From: Sesamum alatum
Taxonomy: Eukaryota > Streptophyta > Magnoliopsida > Lamiales > Pedaliaceae
Length of the DNA: 64,000 nt
Assembly (NCBI GenBank): GCA_034509735.1
Contig: JACGWO010000004.1
Span: 13,807,395 to 13,871,394, forward strand
Direction: 5' to 3'
A program made the translations under genes and the position numbers. The notes beneath the pieces were generated by a model, which saw nothing but the letters and a program-made list of their open reading frames with translations, was not told the DNA's origin and did no database searches. Positions 9,417 through 52,375 of this stretch are shown here, in pieces (the stretch's first letter is position 1; each line of letters opens with the position of its first letter).

Positions 9417-12400
9417 TGTTAGAATAGGTGACCAGAAAGCCAATTGGATTGGCGATTTTGGGTACTATTTATCAATCATTATTAAAGTAATATTGACTTG
9501 ATGAATATAGTAAGTACTCATCCTTGGAACTATGTGTTTGTTGTGCTTACTGATTACGTTAAACGGCATTTTAATGTCACAACAAATGCCCACAGATCAA
9601 TTGGATAACCCATTTAGTTGGGCTGCGCATTGGATGACAACTATGAAACCAACTTCTGAGGGTTGGTCTGAAACATTCCAAGTCGAGGACCTCGAGACAG
9701 GGCATTGAGAGTTTTATAGAGACTTGCACTAAGGATTGCATTCATTGGATAAGTGCCGTGTTTCATCGACAACACTCGGCGACAGACGTTGGACGTCTAT
9801 ACAATGTTAGTGGGTTAGTCGACAATGGTGCCAACTAACTGAATTGACTCGTGGGAATCGTCATATGGAAGCCTTGGAGGCTTGGTCAGTATGATTGAAA
9901 TTCTTGGCTCCGATAGTACAAGATTAGTCCTCGAACTTGAGGAATCATGGTAGTCGTATGCATACGATGGCTGTATCTAGGATCTGGCAAGAGATGTACG
10001 TATTTGGGATACATTTATCATAAGCCTTATCTAGTGCAGTCGGAATATGCATTGAGGACGGTGGATTCCAAGATAGGATCCGTCACCTGTCAGCATATGA
10101 CAATTGAGTCTCCTATGCGCTCTGAGACAGTTTAAACTCTTATAAGTCTGTGGCCACAACGATTGATCGAGTAGGGAATGGTTTCCTACGTTGATCGATA
10201 GAGTAAACGTGTCTTGAGTTATTTAGCATAGTTGTCTAGTCCAGGATGGGAACCGACGCCCAATTCCATGCCCTAGACTTAGACTGGGAGACGGATGATG
10301 GAAAGACCGTACTCGTATGGAACTCGGGAGCCGAAATGTTCACGCCAACATTCACCTAGTCTCTAGTGAAAGCTTTGGGTAAGCGTGTGGATCGTCCTGG
10401 GAATAGCTCGAATGCGGAAGCGCGGTATAATTTAAATTATAAAAATTTAAACATGCATAAACATATATTAAAATAAACACGTTCATGGGGTGTACCCTTG
10501 AAACTCCCGGACGTTCGGTGTATCTGATGAATAATAAAAACATACATAGCAATCATGGAGGCCATAGGATTCTAAAATAAAAGAGGACGAAAAATATAAA
10601 TCGGGAACCTACCGATTGTCGTTTTCGTCTTCTAACCGGTACTCGCGTTGTTCCCCAATTTGCTCCAAGATCTCGTGTAGGAGACCCTCTAATTCGTAAC
10701 ACGCAATCCGCCCACGTATCTTGATCTTCGTGCTAGTGAAAGAGCAAGTGTATTTTGGAGAGGACGGATCGATCAAACGTTATTGACTTAATGAGATCAA
10801 TCCTCCTTTAATGTTCAATTGTTAAAACAAAAGTACAAGAAAATACTTTCTTGGAAGGAGGGAGAGGCACGGCCGAGAGAGGGAGAGGGAGGAGACGAGT
10901 GTGTGTGTGTGTGTGTTTTTCAAGAATCATCATCTCCTTCAAAGTGTGTGCCAAGGAGTATTTATAGAAGAGAAATCCTATTCCTCTTCCAGTTTCCTAC
11001 ACTTTGAAGACTCCACCATAACTAGGATTTGACCTAGTCAAATCCTAGTCAAATTCTTGCTTCTTGGTCAAACCAATCTTAGCCATAGAATCCTCCCTTT
11101 TTAATCTCAACCATTGATTTAATTTAATGAAATATTTAAATCCTATTTAAATATTCCAAGGGCAATAAATAAATATATTAAATATAAATATTTATTCCAA
11201 CCCCATTAAATTAATTTCTAATAAATCTAATTTATTAGATAAATCCCTTTTATCTAATAAAAGGAATTAATTCTTACCAAGAAAATAAGGACCCGATTAA
11301 ATCCAATTTAATCGCTCCACTTCTCCAAATATTTAATTCTAAATTAAATATGTTTATGCGTGCGGATTGTGTGTGACTCTTTAGGTTCACCTTCAGCTAG
11401 ACTTTGGTTGGATTCCTAGAATCCGCCCGTTACCATGGGTGGCTGTCTAGCAACGGTCCATGGCACTAGAGACTAGGTGAATATACGGGGATGAACATTT
11501 AGGCTCTACAGTACATCTATCCTTCCGTCTACAATCTCACCACTTAGGGTCTAGGGCATGGAAAATGCAGGTACCCATTTTGGACCTAAGTGTCGGTCTG
11601 TCCTCTACTAAACGCCGCAAGGGAAACCTTCCCTTCTGTTCAGTTACTGTGGCCACAGATTTTAGGGACAAGACACAGAGCATTTGTGAGACACAACTGT
11701 CAATACCTTTTGACAGGAGACAGATCCTTTCTTGGAAACTACTGTCACTCTGCACACCAGAGCTGCACTAGATATGGCTTATGACCACTCAAGTGCATCT
11801 TGGCAATCTCTCACAATACCTAAGATACAACCCTGATGTACAGGTAAACTCAGCAGTTCCTTAAGTCAAAGGACTTGACCTGTACCGTTGGAACCGGGAA
11901 TACACGCCATACCTAACTGACCCTACTCAAGGTCCTCAGTAAGACGGTTCCCGCGAGTCACCTCAGTCAGCTGCTCCCTAGCAAGCCAACCCACTAACAC
12001 TGCTTAGACGACCCTCGTCACCCATCGATGAAATACGACAGCAGATGCTTAGTGCAAGTCTCAAAGGGAATCTCGGTATCTACAATTTCGAGATTCCTTG
12101 ACTTGGAGAATTTCAGACTGATCCGTCGGGATTGATTTTATGGACCTACCTCCAAGCGTAGTCCCAATCCCCGAAATGCGTTTTCAGTCTGTGGGCTTTG
12201 TTTGCGTAGTGAACAGTTATAAATCAAATAAAGTGAACACAAACAAAGTAAATGCCAAATGAATTTCACTTCTTATTCATTAATAATTTATTAAAACCTC
12301 GAAATTGTTCAGATATAGGTTACAATTCGCCTACCAAGATTGGCTACATAGTCACCTATTCTAACTTCTAGTGCCATGGACCGTTGCTAGACGACCACCC

Positions 12401-13666
12401 ATGGTGACCGGCGTTTTTCGATGAATGGTTAATTGAAAAATAGTTAATTAAATTGGATTTAATTGACTTATTGTGTTGGACACAAGCCCAAGTCTAGTTG
12501 AGGGTGAACCTAAAGAGTCACACACAAATCATTATGAAATTGGTAGAATTAATTTGGAATTAATTCTAGAAGAAGCGAATTAATTTAATTGGATTAAATG
12601 AATTCAAGGAGAAAAATAAATGATTGGATCATTTATTGGGAAATCCATTTGATGGATGGTCCAAGAATTAATTAATTGTATTAGTTAATTTTTGGACTTA
12701 GAACCTATAAGTTAATTGGATTAATTTATCGGGTTTGGATTAATTAATTGATTGGATCAATTAATTAGAGTTTGGACTTATATTTTTGTAATTGAATTAA
12801 ATAAACTTATGGGCTTCAATTGGATTGAGATTAATTGGATTAATTAATTCCCAATGGACTTTATTTGGACTTAATTTAATTAGATTAAATAAAAGTCCAA
12901 GACTAGTAGTCCTAGTCCATGGAAAAATTCAATTATAGCAAGTGAAGGAAGAATTAAAATCTTCCACATGTGAGACACATGTGACCAGCTGTTATATGGT
13001 TTGGTGGGTGGTTTTATTTGCTATAATGGTGCATGGTTATGTAGATAGTGGTGTGTGTATGTAGGTTGCTTTGGAAGTTGACAAGAGAAGTTGAATTTTG
13101 AATTCAACAACTCTACATACACAAAACCATTCACATAATTTGTAAGGACTTGGTCTTGCACAAATTTTTCATCAAAAAACTCTCCAAAATCTCTACAAAT
13201 TTTCTCCATTTTTTGTTCATACCTTTTGGAAAGGTTTGAACTGAAACATTCCAAAAGCACTAATCAATAGTGTTCATTTGGAGTTGTTTGTTTCTTCTTT
13301 TTCTTCTTTTCTACTACTATATAGCAATAGTTTAGAGAACTCTTCCATGGTATGGTGTGGACAAATTAGAGGAGTTCTACTTTGAGCTCTCAAGTGGACA
13401 TACAAGGAAGAAAAGAAGGAACAACGTTAGAAGCCGTTCTACGTAAAACGAACAAAGGTTGGTTTCTATTTACATTCTATGTATCTTTCATTTTTAATCC
13501 TTTAGCCACATGTCTAGCATCTTCTCCTCTTTTATTCATGCTCTTGACATGCACCAAACGCCCTGGAACTTCAAAGGGAACACCCCTTTGAACCCAATTT
13601 GAATTATGCTTTAAATTCACTTTTTTTCGCTTTCGTTGCGTTTTTGGGCCGTACCTGATTCTTTTA
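9417..13666 (+). repeat. 5' LTR of A1, interrupted
   Basis: Begins TGTTAGAATAGGTGACC and ends cttttA (normal end CTTTCA). The two parts 9417-10366 and 12372-13666 together match the 3' LTR. The first part contains moderately GC-rich conserved sequence; from about 12440 to 12900 it is AT-rich (attaattggatt words). Confidence 0.9.
10367..12366 (-). repeat. Solo LTR of subfamily B, minus orientation, 2.0 kb
   Basis: Starts TGAAAGC and ends cctattctaact (expected ...taaca), with the 5-bp target repeat tctag at 10362-10366 and 12367-12371. It splits the conserved ctctagtg|ccatgg core of the A1 5' LTR. Its sequence is the reverse of the LTR at 17414-19381. No internal region remains, so this is a recombined solo LTR. 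It includes a (GT)n run near 10900. Confidence 0.9.
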
Positions 13667-13667
13667 G

Positions 13668-13680
13668 TGGTATCAGAGCC
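13668..13680 (+). other. Primer binding site of A1 (initiator tRNA-Met)
   Basis: TGGTATCAGAGCC lies one base after the LTR end. It is complementary to the 3' end of plant initiator tRNA-Met, the usual copia primer. Confidence 0.92.
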
Positions 13681-15217
13681 CGGTTCAATGTTGTGGCTTT
13701 AAGGATTTACATGTTTTTATGTGTAAAGCATGTACAACGTGTTTAAAACTTTTTTGGAAAGCATGTTTTATGCTTTTTCTAGCATGATTAAATGTATGAA
13801 AGTATGTGTTAATTTTGCTTTTGAAATTATGGGTATCCATGCATTTTTGAGAATTGGATTTTCTGTAAATGCATGTTTATATTTCAGTATTTTATAGTAG
13901 AAATTAAAAAAAAAAAAGTGAAAAATGATGCCGGCCGCCCAACAAGGGCAGCTGGCGCGCGGGCGTCGGCCCGTGCACGCTACAAGGCGTGCATGCTCGC
14001 GCTTGAGAATAGAATTGTTGAATTTTCGCACGGCTGGGCACTGATGTATTATGTATGGGAATCAGACTCAGAGGTGCATAAGTTAAATTACAAGTCATGC
14101 ATATATGTATATTATATTATGCAAGTACTGTTGTGTATTAAAGTTAAATTAGATGTCATGCATATATGTATATTATATCATACAAAGTTGTTGTTGTTGT
14201 AGTTAGTTAGGCCTAGTAGATAATTAAGATTAGGAGATTTGTGTCCAGATGCATGTATATATGTATATAATATACATTAGCTTAGTGATTGGAATTTGCT
14301 TCGTTTCGATAGAGTGAAATCAGGTGCTGCGCGGGCGCTCGGCGCGCGCAGCCGTCTGGGACGGCCGGCGGACAGCACTATTTTGTGTCCTTTTTTGTTG
14401 TTTTTTAGGAAAATTGAATTTTTCTGATTTTTGCTACTTTCTGAAATTATTAATTTTGGCATATTTTTATTTTTAGTTAAATTTGATTTTTCTAAAATTA
14501 TTTTCATGCCTTAGATTATTTTGGAAATAGTTTCCAAACAAAAAATAATTGTTTGTACATTGGATGTATATTTGATATCAATATTTTTAATTGCATTATT
14601 AATATGATATTTTCTGCATTTTATTATGTTTATTGTTTTAGATATTGGATATCTATTTATTAATGCAGGGGATGTATTTATATGCGTGGCATGTTTATAT
14701 TTGATATAAATGTCTTTTGTTTGTTGTTGATTTGATAACAATAAGGATGATCACTAGCCCTTTTTGGCCTATTTATGGTTTATTTATTGTTGGGTTGGGC
14801 CTACGCGCCTCTTTGTTTTTATTCCTTCTTTCGTTTTTAACCTTGAAATAATAAGGCTTTCTTCCTCTCTATTAATATACCGCCCACCCTCAACTTATGA
14901 TTGGGGTTTCTTTTAAGTTGTAATGACAGTAGATTAGGTTGTGAGACTTTATTTTATTAAATGTAAGCTTCCGAGGAGATGAAGGTCCGGTGGCCGGAGC
15001 CCATGGTGGAAGGTCAAGAAGAACAAAGAAGGATTTTACAAGGCCCCATTAGAATGATAATGGGATGTAAATATTGTAATAGTGTAGCCCTACCCTAGTT
15101 TGACCATTGATCCACTGGGGGCTCAGTGGATCAGTAAATATTGTAATAGTGTAGGTCTACCCTAATAGGGGCGTGCTAAGTTTGTTTTGCATGTGCTTAA
15201 GTTTTTTATGCTTTGAT
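13681..15217 (+). other. Long non-coding leader of A1
   Basis: About 1.5 kb between PBS and the next LTR, homologous to 27736-29321 in A2 and to 46105-47899 (reversed) in A3. No gag start lies in it. Two GC-rich islands stand out in AT-rich sequence (about 13926-14005 and 14326-14385, rich in gcgcgcg and ggccgg). It stops at ctttga|t, where subfamily-B LTR sequence begins. Confidence 0.75.
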
Positions 15218-16941
15218 TGTTAGAATAGGTGACCATGTAGCCAATCTTTGTAGGCAATATGTAACCTATGTCTAGACAATTTCAGGGATTTGATAAATTA
15301 TTAATGAATGAAGAAGTGAAATTCATTTGGCATTACTTTGTTTGTGTTCACTTTATCTGCATTACGTATCTGTTCACTATGCAAACAAAGCCCACGGACT
15401 GAAAAATGTATTTCGGGGACTGGGACTACGCTTGGAGGTAGGTCTATGAAATCAGTCCCGTTGAATCAGTCCAAAAATCTCCAAGTCCAGGAATCTCGAA
15501 AATGGGTACCGAGATCCCCTTGAGACTTGCACTAAGCATCTGCTGACGTATTTCATCAACGGGTGACGAAGGTCGTCTAAGCAGTGTTAGTGGGTTAGCT
15601 TGCTAGGGAGCAGCTGACTGAGGTGACTCGCAGGAACCGTCTTATGGAGGACCTTGAGTAGGGTCAGCTAGGTATGACGTGTGTTCCCGATTCCAACAGT
15701 ACAGGTCAAGTCCTTTGACTTGAGGAACTGCTGAGTTTACCTGTACGTCAGGGCTGTATCTTACATATGGTGAGAGATTGCCAAGAAACACTTGAGTAGT
15801 CATAAGCCATGTCTAGTGCAGCTCCGGTGTACAGAGTGACAATAGTTTCCAAGAAAGGTTCTGTCTCCTGTCAAAAGGCATTGACAGTTGAGTCTCACAT
15901 ATGCTCTATGTCCTGTCCATAAAATCTGTGGCCACAGTAACTGAACAGAAGGGAAGGTTTCCCGTGCGGCGTTTAGTAAGAACAGACCGACGCTTAGGTC
16001 CAAAATGGGTACCTGCATTTTCCGTGCCCTGGACCCTAAGTGGTGAGACCGAAGATAGAAGGACAAGTGTACTGCTAGAGCCTAAATGTTCATCCTCGAA
16101 AATTCACCTAGTCTCTAGTGCCATGGACCGTTGCTAGATGGCCACCCATGGTAGCGGGCGGATTCTAGGAATTCGACCAAGTCTAGCTGAAAGGTGAACC
16201 TAAAGAGTCACACACAATCCGCACACATTAAGTATTTAATTTAGAATTAAATATTGGAGAAATGGAATGATTAAATTGGATTTAATTGGGTCCTTAATTT
16301 TCTTGGAGAGAATTAATTCCTTTTATTAGATAAAAGGGATTAATCTAATAAATTAGATTTATTAGAAAATTAATTTAATGGGCCTAGAATAAATATTTAT
16401 ATTTATTATATTAATTTATTTCCCTTTGGAATATTTAAATAGGTTTTAAATATTCTATTAAATTAAATTAATGGTTGAGATTAAAAGGAGAGATGGATGG
16501 CTAGGATTAATTGGACTAGGTCAAATTACTACTTTGACTAGGTCAAAATCCTAGTCAAATTAGTCTTTTAGATTTGGAGTTTGAAGAGGATTAAACTCCT
16601 CCTCTATAAATAGTCCTAGCCCCTCACCATAAAAGAGATGATGAAACTCCAACACACACTCTCACTCGGCTTTCCCTCTCTCGTCCGCCTCTCTCTCTCT
16701 CTCTCTCTCTCTCTCCAAGTTTGTTCTTTTGTGTTAACAATTGAACAAAAGGGGGATTAATCCCGTTAATTAATAACGTGTGATTGATCCGTCCTCTCCT
16801 ATATACTTGTTCGTTCGCTAGCACGACGTGCAAGATACGTGGGCGGATTGCGTGTCACAATTTGGAGAATCTTACATACGAGATTTGGTGCAAATCGGGG
16901 AACAACACGAGTACCGGTTAGAAGACGAAAACGACAAATCG
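15218..16941 (+). repeat. LTR of subfamily B, truncated at its 3' end
   Basis: Starts TGTTAGAATAGGTGACCATG and follows the LTR at 17414 closely up to gacgaaaacgacaa. There it jumps directly into mid-gag sequence, losing about 250 bp of LTR end. A TATA box TATAAATA lies at about 16605-16612, followed by a (CT)n run (16689-16715). A deletion probably removed the LTR end together with the A1 gag start. Confidence 0.85.
16604..16612 (+). promoter_or_regulatory. LTR-B TATA box
   Basis: CTATAAATA in cctcctctataaatagtcc. The same motif is at 18801-18809 in the sister LTR. It would drive retroelement transcription. Confidence 0.65.
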
Positions 16942-17413
16942 TTTGAACACCAGCATGGAAGGATGATGCTATCCCTAGTGGAGAAGCTCAAAGATCTCCG
17001 AGCTGATCTTAGAAAAGAGACGTACATCGACGTGATCCTTCAGTCTCGTCCTCCCTCTTTTGACCCATTTATCGTGAACTACAACAAGAATGAGCTTGAA
17101 AAAGACCTTCATGAGTCGATAAATATGTTGGTCCAATACGAGAAAATGATTGAAAAGTCTATGTCGTCTATTTAGTGGGGGAGGCTTCAACCTCAAGAGC
17201 GAAAGGCAAAGGGGCCGGACGCTGGAGGAGGAATAAGGGTAAGACAGAATCAGCTGCTGCAAGCGCTCAGAGCGCTCCTGTTGCCATGCTGGGCATGGGC
17301 AATAGAAAGAGGAAGGTGGTTCCACAGTCAAGAATTGCAAAAGATATTTGCATATATTGCCGTGAAAAGGGGCATTGGAAGAGGGAACGTCCTAAACTCC
17401 TCTCCAACCAAGG
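16942..17413 (+). pseudogene. gag remnant of A1 (UBN2-type copia Gag, zinc knuckle broken)
   Basis: Reads a copia Gag segment (MMLSLVEKLKDLRADL, then YIDVILQSRPPSFDPF) corresponding to the second half of the A3 gag at 45238-46104. A frame change occurs at about 17170, after which GEASTSRAKGKGAG and a zinc knuckle follow. The knuckle reads CIYC....GHWKRER, so the last Cys of CX2CX4HX4C is Arg. About 130 N-terminal codons are missing. It ends at the target repeat of the next LTR (caagg, 17409-17413). Confidence 0.85.
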
Positions 17414-19381
17414 TGTTACAATAGGTGACCATGTAGCCAATCTTGGTAGGCGAAATGTAACCTATGTCTAGACAATTTCAGGGTTTTGATAAATTATTAA
17501 TGAATAAAGAAGTGAAATTCATTTGGCATTACTTTGTTTGTGTTCACTTTATCTGCATTACATAACTGTTCACTATGCAAACAAAGCCCACGGACTGAAA
17601 ATGTATTTCGGGGACTGGGACTACGCTTGGAGGTAGGTTCATGAAATCAGTCCCGCCGAATCAGTCCAAAAATCTCCAAGTCAAGGAATCTCAAAAATGG
17701 GTACCGAGATTCCCCTTGAGACTTGCACTAAGCATCTGCTGTCGTATTTCATCGACGGGTGACGAAGGTCGTCTAAGCAGTGTTAGTGGGTTAGCCTGCT
17801 AGGGAGCAGCTGACTGAGGTGACTCGCAGGAACCGTCTTACGGACGACAATGAGTAGGGTAGGCTAGGTATGACGTGTGTTCCCGATTCCAACAGTACAG
17901 GTCAAGTCCTTTGACTTGAGCAACTACTGAGTTTACCTGTATGTCAGGGCTGTATCTTAGATATGGTGAGAGATTGCCAAGAAACACTTGACTAGTCATA
18001 AGCCATGTCTAGTGCAGCTCCGGTGTACAGAGTGATAGTAGTTTCCAAGAAAGGATCTGTCTCCTGTCAAAAGGCATTGACAGTTGAGTCTCACATATGC
18101 TCTGTGTCTTGTCCCTAAAATCTGTGGCCACAGTAACTAAACAAAAGGGAATGTTTCCCTTGCGGCGTTTAGTAAGGACAGACCGACACTTAGGTCCAAA
18201 ATGGGTACCTGTATTTTCCGTGTCCTAAACCCTAAGTGGTGAGACCGAAGAGGGAAGGACAAGTATACTGTTAGAGCCTAAATGTTCATCCCCGAATATT
18301 CACCTAGTCTCTAGTGCCATGGACCGTTGCTAGATGGCCACCCATGGTAACGGGCGGATTCTAGGAATCCGACCAAGTATAGCTAAAAGGTGAACCTAAA
18401 GAGTCACACACAATCCACACACATTAAGTATTTAATTTAGAATTAAATATTAGAGAAATGGAATGATTAAATTGGATTTAATCGGGTCCTTAATTTTCTT
18501 GGAGAGAATTAATTCTTTTTATTAGATAAAAGGGATTAATCTAATAAATTAGATTTATTAAAAAATTAATTTAATGGGCCTAGAATAAATATTTATATTT
18601 ATTATATTTATTTATTGCCCTTTGGAATATTTAAATAGGTTTTAAATATTCCATTAAATTAAATTAATGGTTGAGATTAAAAGGAGAGATGGATGGCTAG
18701 GATTTATTTGACTAGGTCAAATATACTACTTTGACTAGGTCAAATTCCTAGTCAAATTAGTCTTCTAGAGTTGGAGTTTGAAGAGGATTAAACTCCTCCT
18801 CTATAAATAGTCCTAGCCCCTCACCATAAGCATGATGATGAATCTCCAACACACACACACACTACAACTCGTGTGCTCTGTCCGTCTAATCTCGTCTGCC
18901 TCTCTCTCTCACTCTCCAAGTTTCGTTTCTTGTTCTTTTGTTCTTGGAACAATTGAACATAGGAGGATTAATCCCGTTAACTTAATAACGTATGATTGAT
19001 CCGTCCTCTCCAATATACTTGTTCGTTCGCTAGCACGACGTACAAGATACGTAGGTGGATTGCGTGTCACAATTTGGAGAATCTCACATACGAGATTTGG
19101 TGCAAATCGGGGAACAATGTGAGTACCGGTTAGAAGACGAAAACGACAATCGGTAGGTTCCCATTTATTTTTCGTCGCTCTCTTTATTTTAAACCCTATG
19201 GCCTCCATGATTCTTGTATGCTTTTAATTCATGAGATACACCGAACACCGGGGAACTTCAAGGGCATACCCCTTGAACGAGTTATTTATTTTTCGTAAAA
19301 GCATGTTTAAATTCCGTTTATTTAAATTTATACCACACTTCCGCATTCGCGCTATTTCCCGGGACGATCTACAATCTTTCA
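17414..19381 (+). repeat. Solo LTR of subfamily B, 1968 bp
   Basis: Starts TGTTACAATAGGTGACC and ends caatctttca, with perfect target repeat caagg (17409-17413 and 19382-19386). It interrupts A1 between gag and pol: ccaaccaagg continues as caaggtatatttga on the other side, matching the uninterrupted A3 sequence. It carries a TATA box at 18802-18809. Confidence 0.93.
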
Positions 19382-19386
19382 CAAGG

Positions 19387-23985: not shown

Positions 23986-23990
23986 ATACC

Positions 23991-25533: not shown

Positions 25534-25538
25534 TTTGG

Positions 25539-27721: not shown

Positions 27722-27722
27722 G

Positions 27723-27735
27723 TGGTATCAGAGCC
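27723..27735 (+). other. Primer binding site of A2 (initiator tRNA-Met)
   Basis: TGGTATCAGAGCC one base past the LTR, identical to the A1 site. Confidence 0.92.
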
Positions 27736-34015: not shown

Positions 34016-34170
34016 ACTACAATATAAATATAGTTTTAGTGGCCAATTATTTGGGGAACTTTTAAAATTGGCCTGCAAAAAATAAATTAAGTTGGTTGTT
34101 TTTATTAAACAACCTTTATAGAGTTTAGCCCAATTTTTAGAGACACATATTTAGAGGCCCATCTGTAAAG

Positions 34171-36382: not shown

Positions 36383-36387
36383 TAAAG

Positions 36388-37682: not shown

Positions 37683-37692
37683 GTTGTAATTA

Positions 37693-37934: not shown

Positions 37935-37944
37935 GTTGTAATTA

Positions 37945-38770: not shown

Positions 38771-38785
38771 TGCAACTATAATTTT

Positions 38786-39027: not shown

Positions 39028-39042
39028 TGCAACTATAATTTT

Positions 39043-39820: not shown

Positions 39821-39830
39821 TATTCAAAGA

Positions 39831-40072
39831 GGCATAAAATGCAATTTTCCCCCTGTGATATAAGAAATAAGCAAAAAATCCCTTGTGAAAAAATAATTGA
39901 GAAATTAGCCCCTGTGATCTTATAATGAAGCAAATTATCCCTATGTATTTTCCCTTGATAGGGGGTAATTTGCTTCATTTTTCAAAATACAGAGAAATAA
40001 TTTACTAAATATTTTTTCATAGGAGGTTTTTGCGCATTCTTATATCACAGGGGCGTAAATTCCATTTATCCC
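39831..40072. mobile_element. Mutator-type palindromic MITE, 242 bp
   Basis: Perfect 10-bp target repeat tattcaaaga (39821-39830 and 40073-40082). Same length and internal order as the copy at 37693; ends ggcataaaatgcaattt and aaattccatttatccc. Confidence 0.92.
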
Positions 40073-40082
40073 TATTCAAAGA

Positions 40083-40649
40083 ATTAAAATTTGAGCTAGA
40101 AGAATTATATATGATGATAAGAGTTGGATCTATCTATCAAGGTAATTTCCTCATTTCTTCTTTTACACTTCCATCAATGTGGTTTGGCACTGAGCTATAT
40201 GAAATATATATCACTCCACTTGTCCTTGTTGGAAGGCTCCAATTCTTAGAAAAGATTCAGGGGTTTGTTTTCTTTAAGAACCCAAATAGTTTCTCATCCT
40301 GTCATAGGAAGAAAATGGGAGCCTTCAGACAAGCTCAGTCAATCACAGTATGAAGTGTAACAAAGGCTCTGTTTGAAGTTTGTGGTTGCTTAATTCCAAG
40401 GTTAGTAGTTGGTGAAGTTCAGTAACACCTGATTTCAAAGTTTTTTCTCCTTAGAAAGCTTTTAATTATGCCTGTGTTGCTTCATTTGAGATTAATATGG
40501 GATTTTCATTTTCTCAAGATATTTCAATTAAATTTATGAAGGCTTAATTCTATTCAAATAAGCTTCTTTACCATATCGGCTCATCAGAAACTTATTTCTA
40601 AGGCATTCTTCCAATTTCGTAGTTTGCATTCTAGGTTGTGTTTGTGCCT
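40083..40649. other. Unassigned sequence left of A3
   Basis: A 107-codon frame starts inside the MITE and runs to 40353, but it has no recognisable domain. I treat it as chance. The sequence continues on the far side of A3 at 52381. Confidence 0.35.
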
Positions 40650-40654
40650 ATATG

Positions 40655-42886
40655 TGAAAGAATCGGGTACGGCCACCGAACGCAATGGAAGCGTAAAAAC
40701 GTGAATTTAAAGCATAATTAAAATGGGTTCAAAGGGGTGTTCCTTCGAAGTTCCCGGGCGTTGGGTGTTTTTCACAGCATAAATAAAAGGAGGAGAAGAT
40801 GTTGGACAAGTGGCTAAAGGAAGAAAACAAAAAGATACATAAAAATGTAAAGAAAACCAACCTTTTGTTTACTACACGTATAACTGGTACATGCATTGTT
40901 TCCTCTCCGTTTCTGCTTCCGTTCACTTGAGAATTCAACGTAGAACTCCTCTAAGTATTGTCTACACCACACCATAGAAGAGTGTATTCCTAAATCTATT
41001 GCTAGATAGAAGTAGAAAAGAAGAAGAAGAAACAGTCCAAAACAATACTATTGTTTAATGCCTTTTGGAATGTTTTTTAAGTTCAACCTTTCCAAAAGGT
41101 ATGAATACAAAAAGGAGAATATTTTCAGAAATTCTGGAGAGTATTTTGATGGAAAAATTCGTGCAAGCAAGACCATACAAGTTATGTGAATGGTTTTGTG
41201 TATGTAGAGTTGTTGAATTCAAAATTCAACTTCTCTTGTCAATTTTCAAAGCAACCTACATACACACACCACTATCTACATAACCATGCACCATTATAGC
41301 AAATAAAACCACCCACCAAACCATATAAAGTCTGGTCACATGTGCCTCACATGTGGAAGATTTTAATTCTTCCTTCACTTGCTATAAATTGAATTTTTCC
41401 ATGGACTAGGACTACTAGTCTTGGACTTTTATTTAATGTAATTAAATTAAGTCCAAACAAAGTCCATTGGGCATTAATTAATCCAATTAATCTCAATCCA
41501 ATTGAAGCCCATAAGTTTATTTAATCCAATTAAATAAACATAAGTCCAAACTCTAATTAATTGATCCAATCAATTAATTAATCCAAACTCAATAAATTAA
41601 TCCAATTATTTTAAAGGTTCTAAGTCCAAAAATTAACTAATCCAATTAATTAATTCTTGGACCATCCATCAAATGAATTCCCAATAAATGATCCAATCAT
41701 TTATTTTTCTCCTTGAATTAATTTAATCCAATTAAATTAATTCGCTTCTTCTAGAATTAATGCCAAATTAATTCTACCAATTCCATAGTGATTTATGTGT
41801 GACTCTTTAGGTTTACCCTCATCTAAACTTGGGCTTGTGTCCAACACAATTGGTCAATTAAATCCAATTTAATTAACTATTTTTCAATTAACCATTAATC
41901 GGAAAACGCCCGTCACCATGGGTGGCTGTCTAGCAATGGTCCATGGCACTAGAGACTAAGTGAATGTTGGCATGAACGTTTAGGCTCCCGAGTTCCATAC
42001 GAGTACGGTCCTTCCATCATCTGTCTCCCGGTCTAAGTCTAGGGTATGGAATTGGGCGTCGGTTCCCATTCTAGACTAGACAACTATGCTCAATAACTCG
42101 AGGCACGTTTGCTCTATTGATCGACGTAGGAAACCATTCCCTACTCGACCAATCGCTGTGGCCACAGACTTAAAGAGCTTATACCGTCTTAGAGCGCATA
42201 AGAGACTCGATTGTCATATTCTGATAGGTGACGGATCCTATCTTGGAATCTACAGTCCTCAATAAATATTCCGACTGCACTGGATAAGGCTTATAATGAA
42301 CGTGTCTCAGATACGGACATCTCTTGCCAGATCCTAGATACAGCCATCATATACATGCGACTGCCATGATTCCTCAAGTTCGAGGACTAATCTCGTACTA
42401 TCGGAGCCGGAAATTCCCGTCATACCGATCAAGCCTCCAATACTTCCATATGACGATTCCCGCGAGTCAGTTCAGTCAGCTGGCACCCTTGTCAACTAAC
42501 CCACTAATATTGCATAGACGTCCAACGTCTGTTGCCGATGAAACACGGCACTCATCCAATGAATGCATTCCTTAGTGAAAGTCTCTATAGGACCCTCGAT
42601 GCCCTGTCTCGATGTCCTCGACTTGGAGCGTTTCAGACCAACCCTCAGAAGTTGGTTTCATAGCTGCCATCGAATGCGCAGCCCAACTACATGGGTTATT
42701 CAATTGATCTGTGGACATTTGTTGTGACGTTAAAACGTCGTTAACGTAATCAGTAAGCATAACAAACACATAGTTCCAAGGATGGATACTTCTTATATTC
42801 ATCAAGTTAATATTACTTTAATAAAGATTGCTAAATAGTATGCAAAACCGTCAATTCAATTGACTTTCTAGTCACCTATTTTAACA
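40655..42886 (-). repeat. 3' LTR of A3, 2232 bp
   Basis: TGAAAGAATCGGG to cacctattttaaca, reversed. The conserved core is near 41915-41965. TATA-like ccatataaag (about 41325) on the minus strand. Confidence 0.93.
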
Positions 42887-42900
42887 ATCTCCCACTTGAC
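42887..42900 (-). other. Polypurine tract of A3
   Basis: Minus-strand gtcaagtgggagat directly before the 3' LTR. Confidence 0.8.
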
Positions 42901-45237
42901 CTAAAGCCAATCACCCATGTCGCTTAGACTTATCTGAGCATAAGTAATTTGCGATATTCGGCTCAATCTCACGGGTCTACCTTATTTCTGTCAAGATGAT
43001 GCGGTCCAACCGCATGCCACATCTTCATACCATTGCTCCAAGCAGATACTGTCTACGAATTTTCCTGGATTCGTGATGAGATCTTGGTCCTGTAGCTTGA
43101 GCTACAGCCATGTTGTTATCCTCCAAGGTAACTACTGGCTCGACCGTGCTAGGCACCACACCCAACCATTGGATGTAGTTTTTCATCCAAACCACTTTAC
43201 AGAGCAACTTCTAAACTTGCCATACATTCAACTTTCATGGTCCGTCGTGGTATCCCGCTTGAAACCTTTCCATGCCACCACCTTACCATTAAGCCTGAAC
43301 ATATGTTCATACTGAGACTTGATATTATTCACATGATCCTGGAAGGTAGTATCGCTATAGCTTTCCAAAATCAACTCTCCATAGAACGTGCATTAAGAAC
43401 ACTTCTTTAATCCTTATTTAGGTATTAAAGACTGTTCTCAACAGCAGTCTACTGCCTCCTCGATAAACACCCGATTTATGTCGTTATGCCCAAAGCATAC
43501 ACAACATCAGGTCCAATGCACTATACAACATACCCATGTTGCATACGGCAAAGACGTAGGGGATGTCAAACATCTAAGTTCCTCATCAGTCAACCCTGAC
43601 TGAGTCTTGGATAGCTTAATCCTATATATAGGAATCAATTCATTTCATGGAGAATTGCGTGAACAACGTTCGTGTTTCAGTATTTTCTAACATCTTAATC
43701 ATTCCAAATGAATAAGACGTTACACACTTTAAACACTAGGAACACAACTAAACTCCCACTAACCCTCAAGCTTGTTACTGATCGAGTCATACCCCGTATG
43801 AACTCATCAAAACTAATATTCCAATTACATGGAGTTCCAAACCTAGTTTGAATTCCACATCGAATCACACGGCTCCAAGCCATTGATTCGATCTAATGTC
43901 CAACATTGCTTCTCCTTACGTCTTTTGGATTATAATCCAATTGACTGGACTGACCCAAAAACCTATATCTCTCAGGTATCTAAGATATTCTTGTTATCTT
44001 TAGAAGAACTGGAATATAGTCAGTGAGCAAACTTGATTTCAAATGACGTTTGTAATATTGTACTGAGGTGTCGCTCTACTTGATTCCTCAAGGAGCTACT
44101 CCTCACACTAGTTATCCTCTGAAATCCAATTTCCCTTAGGACAACACATAAACCTGTGCAAACCTAGTTTGCCTCCCACTAGTCCTTTGACGTATGAAGA
44201 CCATCCCACATACTCAAGTACTTTGTAGGATACAGGCTTGCCATGCCATATCCAATATGGCGTCTGGGCCACGATCTTTAGAAAGTGCCATATTTTACAA
44301 CTTGGTTAATGTCTTAAAAAACATGCCCAGATAGGCCAAGGTAGTTCCGTGAAACACCGATCGAACCATGTCCAACAAGATTCGATTCCTCCCTTATTAG
44401 AGACACTGTTCAATTGTGGCGCTTCAGGGATAATTCCACTGAGTGAGAATTCCATTTTCATTTAGATACATCAAGAGCTCCCACTAAATACACACCACTC
44501 GATCCAATCGAAGGTTAATTTTGCAACCAGTTTGGTTCCCACTTCAAATCTAATTCCCTTAGCCTTCCAAAGGCCTTAGACTTGTGAACCCTCTACTGGT
44601 CTTGTGTATTCAGTGACCCATAGATGTCTGACTAGATCTAATCCAACAGACTATTAGCAAGCATACTTTGTCCTACAAAGAGCTTCTTGACCATCTTCCT
44701 GCTCAGGAAGGACTTGTAAGATAGCAGGCTCAAATTATTTATTTCTAGACTCCTTGAATCTACTAACTTCCTTAACTTATCTAGAGGAATGTGACCTACC
44801 TTTGCATGCCAAATCTGTGAGTTTTTCTTGATTATCCATTTCATCATTTGTTTTGAGCAGTCTTAATCTAATTATGGGATAGTATTAAAACAATTATGCA
44901 AACAACCTAGCAGACAAGAATAACCATTCTTTGTCAAATAAAAGAAACTTTCATTGATAAAAAAAGATGTAATTCTCATTGTCCAACAATAGAAAAACAT
45001 AAGTTTGATCATGCTAGGTTACATAATTGTGACCTAACAACTCTATCCTAACATGATCACTGGCTAAGCCTAGTTGGTCCTATAGCTTTTGCAGCAACAG
45101 CCCAGCCATTGCCTAGCTTGAGAACCATTTCCGTCTTAGCCTTCTACTCCTTCCCATTTCCTGCAAACCATTTGCAGATATGAGCTCTACAACTAGTGTC
45201 CAATAACCAAGAAGCAGAATAGTAATCATGTTAAAGC
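42901..45237 (-). pseudogene. pol remnant of A3 (integrase, RT, RNase H; dead)
   Basis: Minus-strand landmarks: pre-integrase motif KNSQIWHAKVGHIPLDKL and LVDSRSLEINNLSLL (44638-44847); a shortened integrase core; RT words NISFDEFIRG and the former YVDD reading KVCN (about 43695-43883); RNase H end WMKNYIQWLGVVPS and DNNMAVAQATGPRSHH (43025-43207). Stops and frame shifts separate them. The lesions match those of A1 at 19387-21755. Confidence 0.87.
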
Positions 45238-46104
45238 TCAAATCAAATTTTCTTGGTTGGAGAGGAGTTGAGGATACTCCGTCTTCCAATGCCCCTTTTC
45301 ACGGCAATATATGCAAACATCTTTTGCAATCCTTGACTGCCGAACCACCTTCCTCTTTCCATTGTCAATGCCCAACATGGCAATCGGAGCGCTCTGAGTG
45401 CTTGCAGCGGCTGATTCTGTCTTATGCTTCTTCCTCCTCCAGCATCCTGCCCCTTTGCCTTTCACTTTTGAGGTCGAAGCCTCCCCCACCAATACTGACG
45501 GCTCAGACTTTTCAATTGTTGCCACATACTGGACCAACACGTTTATCAAGTCATGAAGGTCTTTTTCAAGCCCATTCATGTTATAGTTAATGATAAACGG
45601 GTCAAAAGAGGGAGGAAGAGACTGAAGGATCACGTCGATGTACGTCTCTTTTTCAAGATCAGCTCGGAGGTCTTTGAGCTTCTCCACTAGGGATAGCATC
45701 ATCACTCCATACTGGTGTACAGACAACCCTTCTGTCATCTTAGCTTCGAAAAATGCCTTCGTCGCAGCATATCTAATATGCCGGTCCGGTACCGCATAAA
45801 CATCTTTCATATGGAGCATTATCGAGCTGACATCATCCAACCGATCATATTGCTTCTGGATCTCATTAGTCATGGATGCCAGTATGATGCTGCGGACCTT
45901 GCGGTTGTCCTCCTGCCATTCATTGAACGTCAAACACTCTTCTGACGAGGACCCCTCCGGCAAGATCCGAGGAAGAGGCTTATCCAAAACGTAAGCCTGG
46001 TCTTAGAAATCGAGGACAATCCTTAGATTTCGCAGCCAATCATTATATTTTGTTCCGTCAAATTTATTAGTCTCAAGAATTAGAACGAGTGGATTCTTAG
46101 ACAT
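45238..46104 (-). pseudogene. gag of A3 (UBN2-type copia Gag with one stop and an altered zinc knuckle)
   Basis: Starts MSKNPLVLILETNKFDG, the usual copia Gag opening, followed by YNDWLRNLRIVLDF. One in-frame stop (TAA, about 46003-46005) precedes DQAYVLDKPLP. From 45987 on, 249 codons are open: the Gag helical core (RSIILASMTNEIQKQYD, MMLSLVEKLKDLRADL, LQSLPPSFDPF) and a basic linker KGKGAGCWRRKK. The zinc knuckle CIYC....GHWKTEY has its last Cys replaced by Tyr. About 285 codons in total. Gag is far better preserved than pol. Confidence 0.9.
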
Positions 46105-47899
46105 CTATATTCAAAGTGTAAAGCAGAAATTTAGTAGATTATTATAATATTGAATTCAAGTTAAGACTTGGTCTTTAGTCATTAACCCCTCCCACTATTT
46201 CTTCAAAACGCCCATCACTCTCAAGTGGGGTTTTCGGGAAATAATTTCCTAGTGGGCTTGAAGTCCACAAACGCAATTCTCCATGCCCCGCTTTTACGAT
46301 TCACATGGGAAAGGCTTTGTGGGAGGTATCCAATACCATTCTCATCCAATGAGATCCCCAAGATATTTTACCTCGCTTCTTCACATGATCCCGATGACTC
46401 CAAGCGAATCATGTTACTTAGCGTTAGGCCCGACCCATCAACCAAATGAATATCTCAACTATCGCCCCCCACAACTCGTGAGACAAGGAAATAGGAGCAT
46501 ATTCCATTCGTTCACAACAACAGTGCAGCTTTCTTCCATGCCAAACGTGCCACGACTCGTGAGACCACGAATGGGTGAAAGTAGCTTCCTCACTATATTG
46601 CTATGGATGGAAGGCTTGGAATAATCAAACCATTTGATTTTAATTCCATTTTGGGCCTAATATTTACTTGGACCGTCCAAGTGAGAGTTATAGTTTATTA
46701 AGACCGAGATCTCATCATTATTAGTATTTTGCATGCTCAAGTTTTAAACATTCAATGTAAATAGATGCATTCCAAACACATCATACATCAAAGCATTAAA
46801 ACATTAAACACATGCAAAACAAGCCTAGCACGCCCCTGTAGGATGATCACAAGCCCGTTCCTAAGTGATCCACTGAGCTCGTAGTGGTTCAATGGTCAAA
46901 CTAGGGTAGGCCTACACTATTACAATTTTTACATCCCATTATCATTCTAATGGGGCCTTGTAAATCCTTCTTTGTTCTTCTTGGGCCTTCCTTCGTGGGC
47001 TCCGTCCAACGGATATATTTTGGGCCTTCATCTCCATGGAAGCTTACATTTATTAAACTAAAACCTCACAACTAATCTACTCTCATTACAACTTAAAAAG
47101 AAACCCCAATCAGAAGTTGGGGGGAGTACATTTAAACAGAGAAAACAAGCCTTATTGTTCCAAGGCTAAAAACGATAGAAGGAATAAAAACAAAGAGGAA
47201 TGCATGTCTCACCCAACATAAAATAAACCATACATAGGTCAATGGGCTAGTGATCATCCTTATCAAATAAACAACAATAAAACACATTTATATCAAATAT
47301 AAACATGCCAAGCATATAAATACATCCCATGCATTTATAAATAGATATCCAATATCTAAAACAATAAACATAATAAAATGCAGAAAATAACATATTAATA
47401 ATGCAATTAAAAAAATAGATATCAACTATACATCCAACGTACAAACAATTTTTTTTTTTTTTTGTTTGGAAACCATCCCCCAAAATAATCCAAGACATAA
47501 AATAATTTTTAAAAAATCCAATTTAACTAAAAATTAAAATATGCCAAAATTAATAATTTCATAAAACTAGCAGAAATCAGGAAAATCCAATTTTCTGGAA
47601 AAATGGGAAAAAACTGTTGCCCCTGCCGGGCAGCCGGCACCGTTTTTCACAACTCTTTCTTTTTTTTTTTTTTTTTTTAATTTTTGCTATAAAACTGAAA
47701 GATAAGCATGCACTTAAAAGAAAATCCAATTCTAAAAAATGCATGGATATCCATAATTTCAAAAGCAAAATTAACACATATTTTCTACACATATTATCAT
47801 GCTTTAAAACATAAATCATTCTTTCCAAAAGCAATTTAAACATATTTTTCATGCTTAACACATAATAACATGTAATTCCTATAGCCACAACACTGAATT
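46105..47899 (-). other. Leader of A3, about 1.8 kb, non-coding
   Basis: Lies between PBS and gag and is homologous to the A1 and A2 leaders. It has a GC-rich patch near 47610-47640, poly-T tracts (47449-47463 and 47650-47680) and no gag-linked frame. Confidence 0.75.
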
Positions 47900-47913
47900 G
47901 GACTCTGATACCA
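47900..47913 (-). other. Primer binding site of A3 (initiator tRNA-Met)
   Basis: Minus-strand TGGTATCAGAGTCC one base after the LTR end ...gattctttca. Confidence 0.92.
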
Positions 47914-47914
47914 T

Positions 47915-50900
47915 TGAAAGAATCGAGTACGGCCCGGGAATACAACGGAAGCGTAAAAATGTGAATTTAAAGCATAATTAAAACGGGTTCAAAGGGGTGT
48001 TCCCTTTGAAGTTTCCGGGCGTTTGGTGTTTTTCACAGCATAAATAAAAGGAGGAGAAGATGCTGGACAAGTGGCTAAAGGAAGAAAACAAAAAGATACA
48101 TGAAAATGTAAAAAAAACCAACCTTTTGTTTACTACACGTATAACCGGTACATGCGTTGTTTCTGAAGGACAAGCGGATCCGCCGGGGAGCGCGAGCGGA
48201 AGCGAGAAAAGTGCGTAAATTAAATCAAATTTAATAAACGAATCCCAAGGGGTGTACCCTTGGGTGCTCAACCGGGCGTTCGATGTAGGATGTGTAAATA
48301 TTGGAAACAAATATTAAACACATAGGCCATAGATAAATATATATAATCAATCAAAGCGTAATAAACCGTTACCTTTGATTGTTTAGCGTATGCTTTCCGG
48401 CTACTTGCGTTGTTCCTTCTCCGGAATGCTCACGAAATCCAAACGTATGGATTCTCCAAAGGTGATCCACACCACACCGAAAGAAACACATGTTCTTCTT
48501 GCTAGAAAAGAACGGGTTTAAGAAGGAATCGATTTAAGAGAAGAACACTATGAATTAGTGCTCTCTTAAACTTACTTTGTTCTTCTTCTTGATTCAAAAT
48601 CAAGTGAAGAACACAAGTATGAGAGAGGGAGAGAGGCCGGGAGTTGAGAGAGAGGAGAGGGGATTCGAAAATTGTCTTCTCTTTTTCCTAGAAAAAGATG
48701 AATAATGAATCACTTATGCTTGGTGTTGTATATTCTAATATATATATATATATATATAATTAATGTGATTATTGGAATGTGTCTAGGTTCATCCAAAGAT
48801 GTCTAGATTCATTCCAATCAATCACCATCAATTCTTCAATCAAGCCTACCAAAATTTATGGTATGATCAAATCATACCAAAAGGGAAGAGCTTGATTGGA
48901 GTTGATTTGTCTCTTTCCAAAAGAGATAAGTCAACATACCACCTAGCATGAAACATGGCTGATTTTGCTTCCTCCAAGGGAGCATGTCGGCCATGTTTAA
49001 ATAAGGGAAGAAGTCCAACTTCTTCCTATTCCAAAATAGGAATTATTTCTCCTCTCGAGTAAATTTAACGGATCGGGTTTTATCGTAATCCAATTACGAC
49101 GAACTCAACATTAAATCCAATTTAATGTCCATTTAAATTATTCTCGTTGATCTTTTAATCAAATTAAAAGATCCAACGTCTCAACGTCTCAACTTTTCAT
49201 ATTTAATCAAAAATCCAATTTACCGATTAAATGAAAGCCCGATACAATATCGGCCCGTCCATCCAATGGACTTTCCTTAAGTAATCCAATTACTTACTTA
49301 TCCTTTGAGATTGACTCCAAGTCAATCTCTCAACCTCCTCGGTGATTTGTGTATGACCCTTTAGGTTCACCCTCAGCTAGACATGGGCCCGTGTCCCACA
49401 AGGGCCCGTTACCATGGGTGGCCGTCTAGCAACGGTCCATGGCACTAGAGACTAGGTGAATTGGCGTGAACATTTAGGCGCCGATTCCGTATGGGTACGA
49501 TCCTTCCGTCTACCGTCTCTCGGCCTTAGTCTAGGGTATGGAATTGGGTGTTGGTTCCCATCCTTGACTAGGCATCTATGCTTAATACTCGAGACCACGT
49601 ATGCTTCATTGCGTTGACACAGGAAACCATTCCTTGTCCGACCAACCACTGTGGCCACAGCTTCAAACAGCATGAACATGTCTCCGAGTGCATAGGAGAT
49701 ACCTCTATCACATACTGACAGGGGATGGATCCTCTTCTTGGAATCCACCGTACTCGCTACACATTCCGACTGCACTGGAAAAGGCTTATGATAATCATAT
49801 TACAGAATGATTACCTCTCGCCAGATCCAAGATACAGCCGTCATGTGCACGCGACTCCCATAATCCCTCAAGTCTGAGGATTACTCCCGTACTATCGAAA
49901 CCTGGGAAAACCAATCATACCGACCAAGCCTCCAAGGCTTCCATATGATGATCCCCGCGAGTCAGTCCAGTCGGCTCGACCCCCAGTCGACCAACCCATC
50001 AAGATCGTGCAGGCATCCCACGTCTGTCGCCGATGAAACACGGCACTCATCCAATGAATACGACTCTTGACGCAAGTCTTAATAGGACTCTCGATGCCCT
50101 AGCTCGAGGTCCTCGACTTGGAACGTTTCAGACCCAACTCTTAATCAGTTGGTTTCATGACCACCATCCAATGCGTGGCCCAACTGCACGAGTTGTTATC
50201 CATGGTCTGTGGGCTTTGTTGCGATATAAGTTAAACGCCGTTTTAACAAATGTAAGATGAGCGCAACAAAGAAGGTACCATTGGTGACGAACACTCATCT
50301 TATTCATGACATAATAATATTACATCTACATCAAGTTGTCGAATAGGTTACAAATTGTCAAACCTATTGGTTTTTTGGTCACCTATTCTAACAGTTTCCT
50401 CTCCGTTTATCCTTCTGTTCACTTGAGAATTCTAACGTAGAACTCCTCTAAGTATTGTCCACACCACACCATAGAAGAGTGTATCCCCAAATCTATTGCT
50501 AGAGAGAAATAGAGAAAAAGAAGAAGAAACAATCCAAAACAACACTATTGTTTAGTGCCTTTTGGAATGTTTTTTAAGTTCAACATTTCCAAAAGGTATG
50601 AATACAAAACGGAGAATATTTTCAAAGAGTTTGGAGAGTATTTTGATGGAAAAATTCGTGCAAGACAAGACCATACAAGTTATGTGAATGGTTTTGTGTA
50701 TGTAGAGTTGTTGAATTCAAAATTCAACTTCTCTTGTCAACTTCCAAAGCAACCTACATACACACACCACTATCTACATAACCATGCAACATTATAGCAA
50801 ATAAAACCACCCACCAAATCATATAAAGTCTGGTCACATGTGCCTCACATGTGGAAGATTTTAATTCTTCCTTCACTTGCTATAAATTGAATTTTTCCAT

Positions 50901-52375
50901 GGACTAGGACTACTAGTCTTGGACTTTTATTTAATGTAATTAAATTAAGTCCAAACAAAGTCCATTGGGCATTAATTAATCCAATTAATCTCAATTCAAT
51001 TGAAGCCCATAAGTTTATTTAATCGAATTAAATAAACATAAGTCCAAACTCTAATTAATTGATCCAAGCAATTAATGAATCCAAACCCGATAAATTAATC
51101 CAATTAATTTAAAGGTTCTAAGTTCAAAAATCAACCAATCTAATTAATTAATTCTTGGACCATCCATCAAATGGATTCCCAATAAATGATCCAATCATTT
51201 ATTTTTCTCCTTGAATTAATTTAATCCAATTAAATTAATTTGCTTCTTCTAGAATTAATTCCAAATTAATTCTACCAATTTCATAATGATTTGTGGGTGA
51301 CTCTTTAGGTTCACCCTCAGCTAGACTTGGGCTTGTGTCTAACAGAATTGGTCAATCAAATCCAATTTAATTAACTATTTTTCAATTAATAATTAATCGA
51401 AAAACGCCCGTCACCATGAGTGGTCGTCTAGCAACGTTCCATGGAACTAGAGACTAGGTGAATATTGGCGTGAACGTTTAGGCTCCCGAGTTCCATACGA
51501 TTACGGTCTTTCCATCATCCGTCTCCCGGTCTAAGTTCAGGGCATGGAATTAGGCGTGGGTTCTCATCCTGGACTAGAAAACTATGCTCAATAACTCGAG
51601 ACACGTTTGCTCTATTGATCGACGTAGGAAACCATTCCCTACTCGACCAATCATTGTGGCCACATAATTAAAGAGCTTAAACCGTCTCAGAGCGCATAGG
51701 AGACTCGACTGTCATATTCTGACAGGTGACGGATCCCATCTTGGAATCTACCGTCCTCAATATATATTCCGACTGCACTGGATAAGGCTTAGATGAATTT
51801 ATCCTAGATACAGACATCTCTTGCCATATCCTAGATACAGCCATCATATGCATGCGACTGCCATGATTCCTCAAGTCCGAGGACTAATCTCGTACTATTA
51901 GAGCTGGGAATTTCAGTCATACCGACCAAGCCTCCAAGGCTTCCATATGACGATTCCTGGAAGTCAGTTCAGTCAGCTAGCACCCTTGTCAACTAACCCA
52001 CTAATATTGCATAGACGTCCAACGTCTGTTGCCGATGAAACACGGCACTCATCCAATGAATGCAATCCTTAGTGTAAGTCTCTATAGGATCCTTGATGCC
52101 CTGTCTCGAGGTCCTCGACTTGGAATGTTTCAGACCAACCCTCAGAAGTTGGTTTCATAGCTTGCGTAGCCCAACTACATGGGTTATCCAATTGATCTGT
52201 GGGCATTTGTTGTGACGTTAAAACATCGTTTAACGTAATCAGTAAGCACAATAACCACATAGTTTCAAGGATGAATACTTACTATATTCATCAAGTCAAT
52301 ATTTCTTTAATATAGATTGCTAAATAGTACCTAAAGCCGCCAATTCAATTGGCTTTCTGGTCACCAATTCTAACA
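47915..52375 (-). repeat. 5' LTR of A3, interrupted
   Basis: Parts 47915-48163 and 50399-52375 (reversed) join to about 2226 bp. Ends TGAAAGAATCGAG and caccaattctaaca. Conserved core near 51412-51465. Confidence 0.92.
48164..50393 (-). repeat. Solo LTR of subfamily C, 2230 bp
   Basis: TGAAGGACAAGCGGATCC to cctattctaaca, with perfect target repeat gtttc (48159-48163 and 50394-50398). Close relative of 34171-36382. It contains an (AT)n near 48738-48760. Confidence 0.94.

What the first reader, a model, noticed from the sequence alone, without database searches (positions are those of the whole stretch)
9417..52375. A retrotransposon family that kept moving after its polymerase died
A1 (9417-23985) and A3 (40655-52375) have different target repeats (acacc/atacc and atatg), so each came from a separate insertion and not from a segmental duplication. 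Yet both carry the same pol lesions: the RT catalytic YVDD position reads KVCN, and the same part of the integrase core after the GSLNTQ-type motif is missing. Gag is much better kept than pol. The simplest reading is a non-autonomous copia lineage with a fossil pol, mobilised in trans. The long conserved leader and LTRs would be the parts under selection.
Basis: partly seen in the sequence, partly recalled or inferred. Interest (0 to 1): 0.75.

Follow-up and report, generated by a model that had tools for sequence, protein, structure and literature searches.

The report
Copying retrotransposon with dead polymerase
A family of jumping DNA in a wild sesame relative kept inserting itself long after its own copying genes had rotted away, apparently by borrowing the proteins of an intact cousin; similar cases are already known in wheat.

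Summary
A1 and A3 are separate copia-type insertions (TSDs; each element's LTRs are sisters, 100/100) with the same dead pol. YVDD reads KVCN, an integrase segment is gone, and a deletion of about 122 codons also removes the RT motif-A Asp. The host genome, 527.7 Mb, fits Sesamum alatum. There the KVCN-type site occurs 351 times, the intact relative's YVDD site 784 times. All 22 copies compared carry the lesion, though 20 were picked by it; of 12 picked by leader, 11 carry it and none shows YVDD. Four copies have LTR K 0.0023-0.0064, so the family moved recently. Intact relatives ("alpha") share LTR ends, PBS, PPT, U3 and distal leader, and lie outside the defective clade in pol and gag trees, but not in the U5+leader tree. 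Corrections: the leader is the least alike region between A1 and A3, and gag is broken in the youngest copies too. Best reading: a non-autonomous family mobilised in trans by an alpha-like helper. A new member of a known kind (wheat RLC_Angela, PMC9744471).

The parts
9417..23985 (+). A1: defective copia element, TSD ACACC/ATACC
9417..10366 (+). A1 5' LTR, first part (continues 12367-13664)
10367..12366 (-). B1, later solo LTR nested in A1 5' LTR, TSD TCTAG
12367..13664 (+). A1 5' LTR, second part (its last two bases may be 13665-13666)
13668..13679 (+). A1 primer-binding site TGGTATCAGAGC (initiator Met-tRNA type by recall)
13665..15217 (+). A1 leader
15218..16937 (+). B-type LTR fragment, 3' truncated; about 1.06 kb of A1 is missing here
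16938..17413 (+). A1 gag remnant
17414..19381 (+). B2, later solo LTR, TSD CAAGG
19386..21755 (+). A1 fossil pol
20908..20919 (+). KVCN at the YVDD position, A1
21756..23985 (+). A1 3' LTR
25539..31091 (+). A2: truncated relative, TSD TTTGG, no gag or pol left
34171..36382 (-). C1 solo LTR (beta family), TSD TAAAG
40655..52375 (-). A3: defective copia element, TSD ATATG/ATATG
40655..42886 (-). A3 3' LTR
42887..45240 (-). A3 fossil pol
43719..43730 (-). KVCN at the YVDD position, A3
45241..46104 (-). A3 gag (open 45241-46002, one stop upstream); PF14223
46105..47914 (-). A3 leader
47915..48163 (-). A3 5' LTR, 3' part (rest 50394-52375)
48164..50393 (-). C2 solo LTR (beta family) nested in A3 5' LTR, TSD GTTTC
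50394..52375 (-). A3 5' LTR, 5' part

Best explanation
A1 and A3 belong to a non-autonomous copia family of Sesamum alatum. One ancestor lost pol: the RT lost its catalytic residues and the integrase part of its core. Its RNA keeps the LTR promoter ends, PBS, PPT and leader, so it is transcribed and packaged, reverse transcribed and integrated by proteins made in trans by an intact alpha-like copia element of the same genome. Pol died first and is dead in the same way in the copies examined. Gag stayed open longer and was lost later, also in the youngest lineage. Shown here: separate insertions, shared lesions, recent movement, and an intact relative with matching cis ends. Inferred: transcription, packaging and trans-mobilisation, and that alpha is the helper.
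For: Separate insertions: TSDs and sister LTR pairs, 100/100. Lesions older than the insertions: 20 of 22 A1 frameshifts shared with A3 (P0151), and pol disablements 27-37 against 4.4-4.9 expected if intact at insertion. Family scale: KVCN-type site 351 times, reversed-pattern control 0; 22 of 22 copies; 11 of 12 leader-chosen copies, none with YVDD. Recent movement: LTR K 0.0023, 0.0036, 0.0045, 0.0064 in four of nine dated copies. Helper: intact-type YVDD site 784 times, control 0; open frames up to 1313 aa with no stop in the matched stretches; alpha L030 shares PBS, LTR end and PPT. Inverted conservation: three young defective copies v alpha LTR 0.84, leader 0.86-0.87, gag 0.81, pol 0.69-0.76; alpha v beta LTR 0.64, leader 0.71, gag 0.79, pol 0.85. 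dN/dS of pol PR-INT 0.41-0.46 with the defective copies v 0.12 between intact ones; gag 0.23 v 0.12.
Against: No RNA, particle or transposition data. Pol and gag trees hold only three intact copies, two of them near-identical. In the U5+leader tree the intact alpha clade nests among the defective rows. LTR similarity to alpha is 84% overall and not uniform, so a closer helper may exist. Alpha's LTR was read in one copy only (L030); L029 has no LTR match on its 5' side. The 20 long copies were picked by a lesion-bearing query; the leader test covers 12 of 40 listed hits, most of them equal in score and so probably of one young burst.
Confidence: 0.92

Rival explanations
1. The shared lesions arose by gene conversion between A1 and A3 after insertion.
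For: Both lie in one 64-kb window and nested repeats can convert. A1-A3 K is slightly lower in pol (0.109) than in LTR (0.12-0.13).
Against: The same lesion sits in 20 further copies on nine contigs and at 351 places. A1-A3 differences run along the whole of pol, 6.8-12.4% per 250 bases. In the pol tree A3 falls with the young copies (94/96) and A1 outside them.
Confidence: 0.02
2. A long-dead genomic copy was re-mobilised once (dead master): pol and gag decayed together in the chromosome before the burst.
For: The four youngest copies have broken gag as well as pol and share one gag nonsense change; three of them compared are 99.2-99.7% alike.
Against: Gag carries far fewer and mostly private lesions; A3 gag fits an open frame at insertion (3 disablements seen, 2.6 expected). 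Gag dN/dS is 0.23 against 0.41-0.46 for pol. Insertions range from K 0.002 to 0.077, so movement was repeated.
Confidence: 0.08
3. Helper not alpha: an unrelated or unsampled copia family mobilises these elements.
For: Only three intact copies were read in length and 14 more at U5+leader (12 alpha, 2 beta); the LTR 3' part is only about 67% like alpha.
Against: Alpha matches PBS, PPT, LTR ends, U3 and distal leader and has very short tips, so it was active recently. Beta differs at the LTR end.
Confidence: 0.2

Closest known systems
Wheat RLC_Angela non-autonomous subfamilies (PMC9744471, abstract and sections 2.6, 2.7 and 3.2 read)
   Same: Copia elements with highly degenerated CDS, similar in size to autonomous ones, forming their own clade in internal sequence while LTRs follow autonomous partners.
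   Different: Here gag outlived pol, and the lesions are described at motif level; host is a Lamiales genome. No PCA or genome-wide age pairing was done here.
RLG_Quinta / RLG_Cereba in einkorn (PMC11302176, abstract read)
   Same: Autonomous and non-autonomous pair tied by LTR, PBS and PPT; the non-autonomous one was proposed to supply Gag.
   Different: Centromeric family (gypsy by recall); gag of the youngest copies here is broken.
TR-GAG elements (name seen in search listings; definition recalled)
   Same: No working pol, gag-type sequence kept.
   Different: Gag is not open in the 17 copies compared, and a 2.35-kb fossil pol remains.
BARE2 of barley (mentioned in PMC9744471 section 3.2)
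   Same: One gene lost, rest supplied in trans.
   Different: There gag is disrupted and the rest intact; here pol went first.

Membership tests
Non-autonomous LTR retrotransposon with degenerate coding region (RLC_Angela type) | Two LTRs with TG..CA ends, PBS, PPT and TSD | tested here: met
Non-autonomous LTR retrotransposon with degenerate coding region (RLC_Angela type) | No functional RT/integrase frame in the copies examined | tested here: met
   22 of 22 copies with the RT lesion; A1 and A3 in detail
Non-autonomous LTR retrotransposon with degenerate coding region (RLC_Angela type) | Several insertions derived from an already defective parent | tested here: met
Non-autonomous LTR retrotransposon with degenerate coding region (RLC_Angela type) | Autonomous relative with matching cis sequences in the same genome | tested here: met
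   L030
Non-autonomous LTR retrotransposon with degenerate coding region (RLC_Angela type) | RNA packaged and reverse transcribed in trans | not testable with these tools
   needs RNA, particle or eccDNA data
TR-GAG (definition recalled) | Intact gag frame only | tested here: not met
   17 of 17 gag copies carry at least one stop or frameshifting gap against alpha, A3 the fewest with one stop (one search also counted end-of-alignment artefacts in A3 and L020)
Copia superfamily | Copia-type gag (PF14223) and INT before RT | tested here: met
   PF14223 in A3 gag; order of remnants against P0151
Angela lineage of copia | Placement in an RT tree of plant copia lineages | not tested
   no reference set on hand

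The most novel reading that the evidence does not exclude
The defective lineage stays mobile because its RNA is co-packaged with helper and sister RNAs, so that strand transfer swaps U5 and leader blocks between lineages. A dead element would thus keep renewing its cis signals while its genes are lost in order, first pol, then gag. The A1/A3 LTR mosaic (66 fixed differences in the last 417 sites against 29 in 1783, 0 of 1000 shuffles) and the blockwise likeness to alpha would be its traces.
Probability: 0.35. Interest if true: 0.6.

Novelty: new member of a known kind. Interest (0 to 1): 0.45.

Why it matters
It gives a clear, recently active example outside grasses of a retrotransposon family that seems to live on a helper, with order of gene loss, helper candidate and conserved cis blocks all visible in one genome. 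The set of copies makes it testable which parts of LTR and leader are needed for recognition in trans, and how such lineages keep their signals matched to the helper.

Tried and rejected
The 103-aa A1 piece spanning the RT junction found no protein relative at E<=1 (one candidate; unannotated fossils would not be listed). Gag in viral contigs gave no relative. Pfam on six stop-free pol pieces gave one weak gag_pre-integrs match below the cut-off and one weak match to an unrelated family. The idea that the first deletion removes a catalytic integrase Asp was dropped after aligning to solved integrases: the first and second Asp codons are kept; the Glu position reads D in A1 and N in A3. Gag-v-pol identity among 24 Sesamum gene models showed no general bias (12 of 24 with pol at least as high as gag), so the nucleotide comparison with alpha and beta was used instead. 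A Ti/Tv difference between pre- and post-insertion changes (p 7e-5) vanished outside the U5 block (17:5 against 189:71, p 0.80), so it was not used. The promoter/terminator scan is for bacterial signals and says nothing here. A1-A3 gag differences show no third-position excess (18, 20, 21). Papers: PMC3701649 outline and abstract only (its TARE1 is an LTR-end mutation, so not a close case); PMC11490215 passages only; PMC11302176 outline and abstract only. The search (Sesamum alatum, genome, retrotransposon) listed 0 papers; and one search listed sesame and retrotransposon papers of which only those named here were opened.
Full report
What is there. The window holds two long copia-type elements, A1 (+, 9417-23985) and A3 (-, 52375-40655), a truncated relative A2 (25539-31091) and several solo LTRs. 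LTRs are about 2.23 kb. A1 is cut by solo LTRs B1 (10367-12366) and B2 (17414-19381) and a B-type fragment at 15218-16937; A3 by solo LTR C2 (48164-50393). TSDs: A1 ACACC/ATACC, A3 ATATG, A2 TTTGG, B1 TCTAG, B2 CAAGG, C1 TAAAG, C2 GTTTC. A 4/5 match is not rare by chance (2.0%), so for A1 the LTR tree is the stronger evidence: A1's LTRs, A3's LTRs and A2's LTRs each pair with 100/100 support.

Host. The window lies at C80:13807395-13871394 of a genome of 527,674,879 bases. Contig C79 is 53,283,286 bases long, the contig length listed for the Sesamum alatum protein P0012. S. alatum is given as 528.0 Mb in PMC11490215 (passage read). I take the host as S. alatum.

The lesions. Sesamum pol proteins came from the protein searches. 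A frameshift-tolerant alignment shows KVCN at the YVDD position in A1 and A3 with all five references that reach it. A deletion of about 122-125 codons takes out the RT region with the motif-A Asp (the motif name is recalled). Further shared losses are 20 codons in A1 and 13-24 in A3 of the integrase core after GSLNTQ, about 24 codons near the SH3-like region, and about 37-44 codons after the YVDD region. Integrase Asp 1 and Asp 2 codons remain, with a frameshift beside Asp 2; the Glu is D in A1 and N in A3 (catalytic positions by alignment to solved integrases). With P0151 as reference A1 has 22 frameshifts and A3 27, of which 20 of A1's 22 are shared within 15 bases; 4 of 5 A1 stops are shared, A3 having 9. 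With P0144, 21 of 25 frameshifts but only 6 of 12 A1 stops are shared, so part of the stops came later. A1 and A3 pol differ by only 12 gaps in 2358 aligned sites.

When. Within-element LTR K is 0.077 (A1), 0.073 (A3), 0.077 (A2, part); A1-A3 K is 0.12-0.13 in LTR, 0.109 in pol, 0.138 in gag, 0.161 in leader. If pol had been intact at insertion, 4.4-4.9 disablements would be expected from the LTR divergence; 27-37 are seen. For gag, 2.6 expected and 3 seen in A3, 1.5 expected and 3 seen in A1. So pol was dead, and gag probably open, when A1 and A3 were inserted. These expectations use one mean rate and are rough. A1-A3 gag differences by themselves show no sign of selection.

Family scale. The RT-junction piece of A1 gave 40 scored matches out of 2423 first-look candidates. 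The 38-base KVCN-type site occurs 351 times with up to 3 mismatches, control 0; copies with a one-base loss there are not counted, and the search for that form did not complete. The matching intact alpha-type site occurs 784 times, control 0; an intact site does not mean an intact element. Twenty 10-kb stretches around lesion hits, A1 and A3 all show the lesion site and the deletion junction (22 of 22): 13 read KVCN, 7 have lost one base there, one reads a stop and one T for the K. Those 20 were picked by a lesion-bearing query. In a second sample picked by leader likeness to A3 (40 scored of 4281 candidates; 12 read), 11 of 12 carry the lesion in line with A1 pol, one (L052) has no pol match in the 251 bases read, and none shows the YVDD site. 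Most of these 12 tie in score and are probably of one young burst, so they are not 12 independent tests; three of them also appear in the list.

Still moving. Of the 20 copies, 13 were looked at for boundaries and nine could be dated. K is 0.0023 (L027), 0.0036 (L026), 0.0045 (L018), 0.0064 (L022), and 0.054-0.070 in L014, L016, L019, L020, L024. Of ten copies with both flanks printed, TSDs match 5/5 in five, 4/5 in two and 2/5 in three (L017, L024, L026), where the boundary may be misplaced. L018, L022 and L027 are 99.2-99.7% alike in LTR, leader, gag and pol.

Gag. All 17 gag copies compared with alpha carry at least one stop or frameshifting gap, from one in A3 to ten in L024, mostly private, with a few shared by subsets. 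The four young copies have 2-4 each and share one nonsense change, also found in L015 and L019. So the youngest lineage has lost gag too. dN/dS in gag is 0.23 (defective v alpha) against 0.12 (alpha v beta); in PR-INT 0.41-0.46 against 0.12. Stem lengths agree: pol 0.22 for the defective clade and 0.037 for alpha; gag 0.16 and 0.092.

The helper. A protein search with P0151 scored 62 of 33,286 candidates, with open frames up to 1313 aa that have no stop in the matched stretches. Alpha copies L029 and L030 and beta copy L031 read YVDD. Beta's LTR is the C family (C2 93.5%, C1 87.8%), so the C solo LTRs come from beta or its kin. Alpha L030 shares with the young defective copies the LTR end, PBS, PPT and U3 start (L022 lacks a base in PBS and PPT); beta's LTR end differs. 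L029 shows no LTR match on its 5' side. Along alpha, the young copy L027 is 0.93-0.94 alike in the first kilobase of the stretch, 0.67-0.68 in the LTR 3' part, 0.89 around the LTR end, 0.65-0.76 in the proximal leader, 0.88-0.96 in the distal leader, 0.79-0.82 in gag and mostly 0.70-0.82 beyond. Alpha v beta shows the reverse order overall, with pol best kept, but there too part of U3 (0.76-0.86) and the leader next to gag (up to 0.90) are the better kept noncoding parts, which speaks for constraint on them. In pol and gag trees the 17 defective rows form one clade, 100/100. In the U5+leader tree the 14 alpha rows form one clade that nests, with A2 and L025, among the defective rows. This is a result against a simple split and fits either unequal rates or exchange of these blocks. 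Four alpha tips there are at most 0.0043 long, so alpha seems to have been active recently too.

A mosaic. A1 and A3 LTRs differ by 29 fixed differences in the first 1783 sites and 66 in the last 417 (0 of 1000 shuffles as strong), while the within-element divergence is not raised there. The dead pol, which should be free to change, differs by 10% in all, against about 7% within LTR pairs, so fast neutral change alone does not explain the block; exchange between sublineages during reverse transcription is the likely cause (inference).

Verdict. What changes is the role of gag, which was lost later and is not maintained now, and of the leader, which is well kept only in its distal part and only in comparison with the helper. 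Wheat RLC_Angela has the same architecture (PMC9744471, three sections read), so I rate this a new member of a known kind.

Noticed in passing
window 3003-3941 (-): Gene with a PCC domain (AHL-type, name recalled), PF03479.
   Followed up: no
window 57409-62481 (+): Broken, probably LINE-like element with a partial RVT_1 match below the Pfam cut-off at 59342-60838.
   Followed up: no
window 24144-24593 (-): RNase H fragment of a retroelement, probably gypsy-type (PF17919, PF17917).
   Followed up: no
window 8318-9416: Diverged, inverted LTR-like piece that ends next to A1; A1's TSD includes its last bases.
   Followed up: partly
window 34171-36382 and 48164-50393: C1 and C2 are solo LTRs close to an autonomous copia family (beta, L031) with an open frame of 1313 aa.
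   Followed up: partly
window 25539-31091: A2's U5 and leader group next to the intact alpha clade, but its gag and pol are gone, so its state cannot be told.
   Followed up: partly
A1 and A3 LTRs: Of 260 polarised changes after insertion 150 are G to A or C to T; this may reflect cytosine methylation, whose context was not tested.
   Followed up: partly
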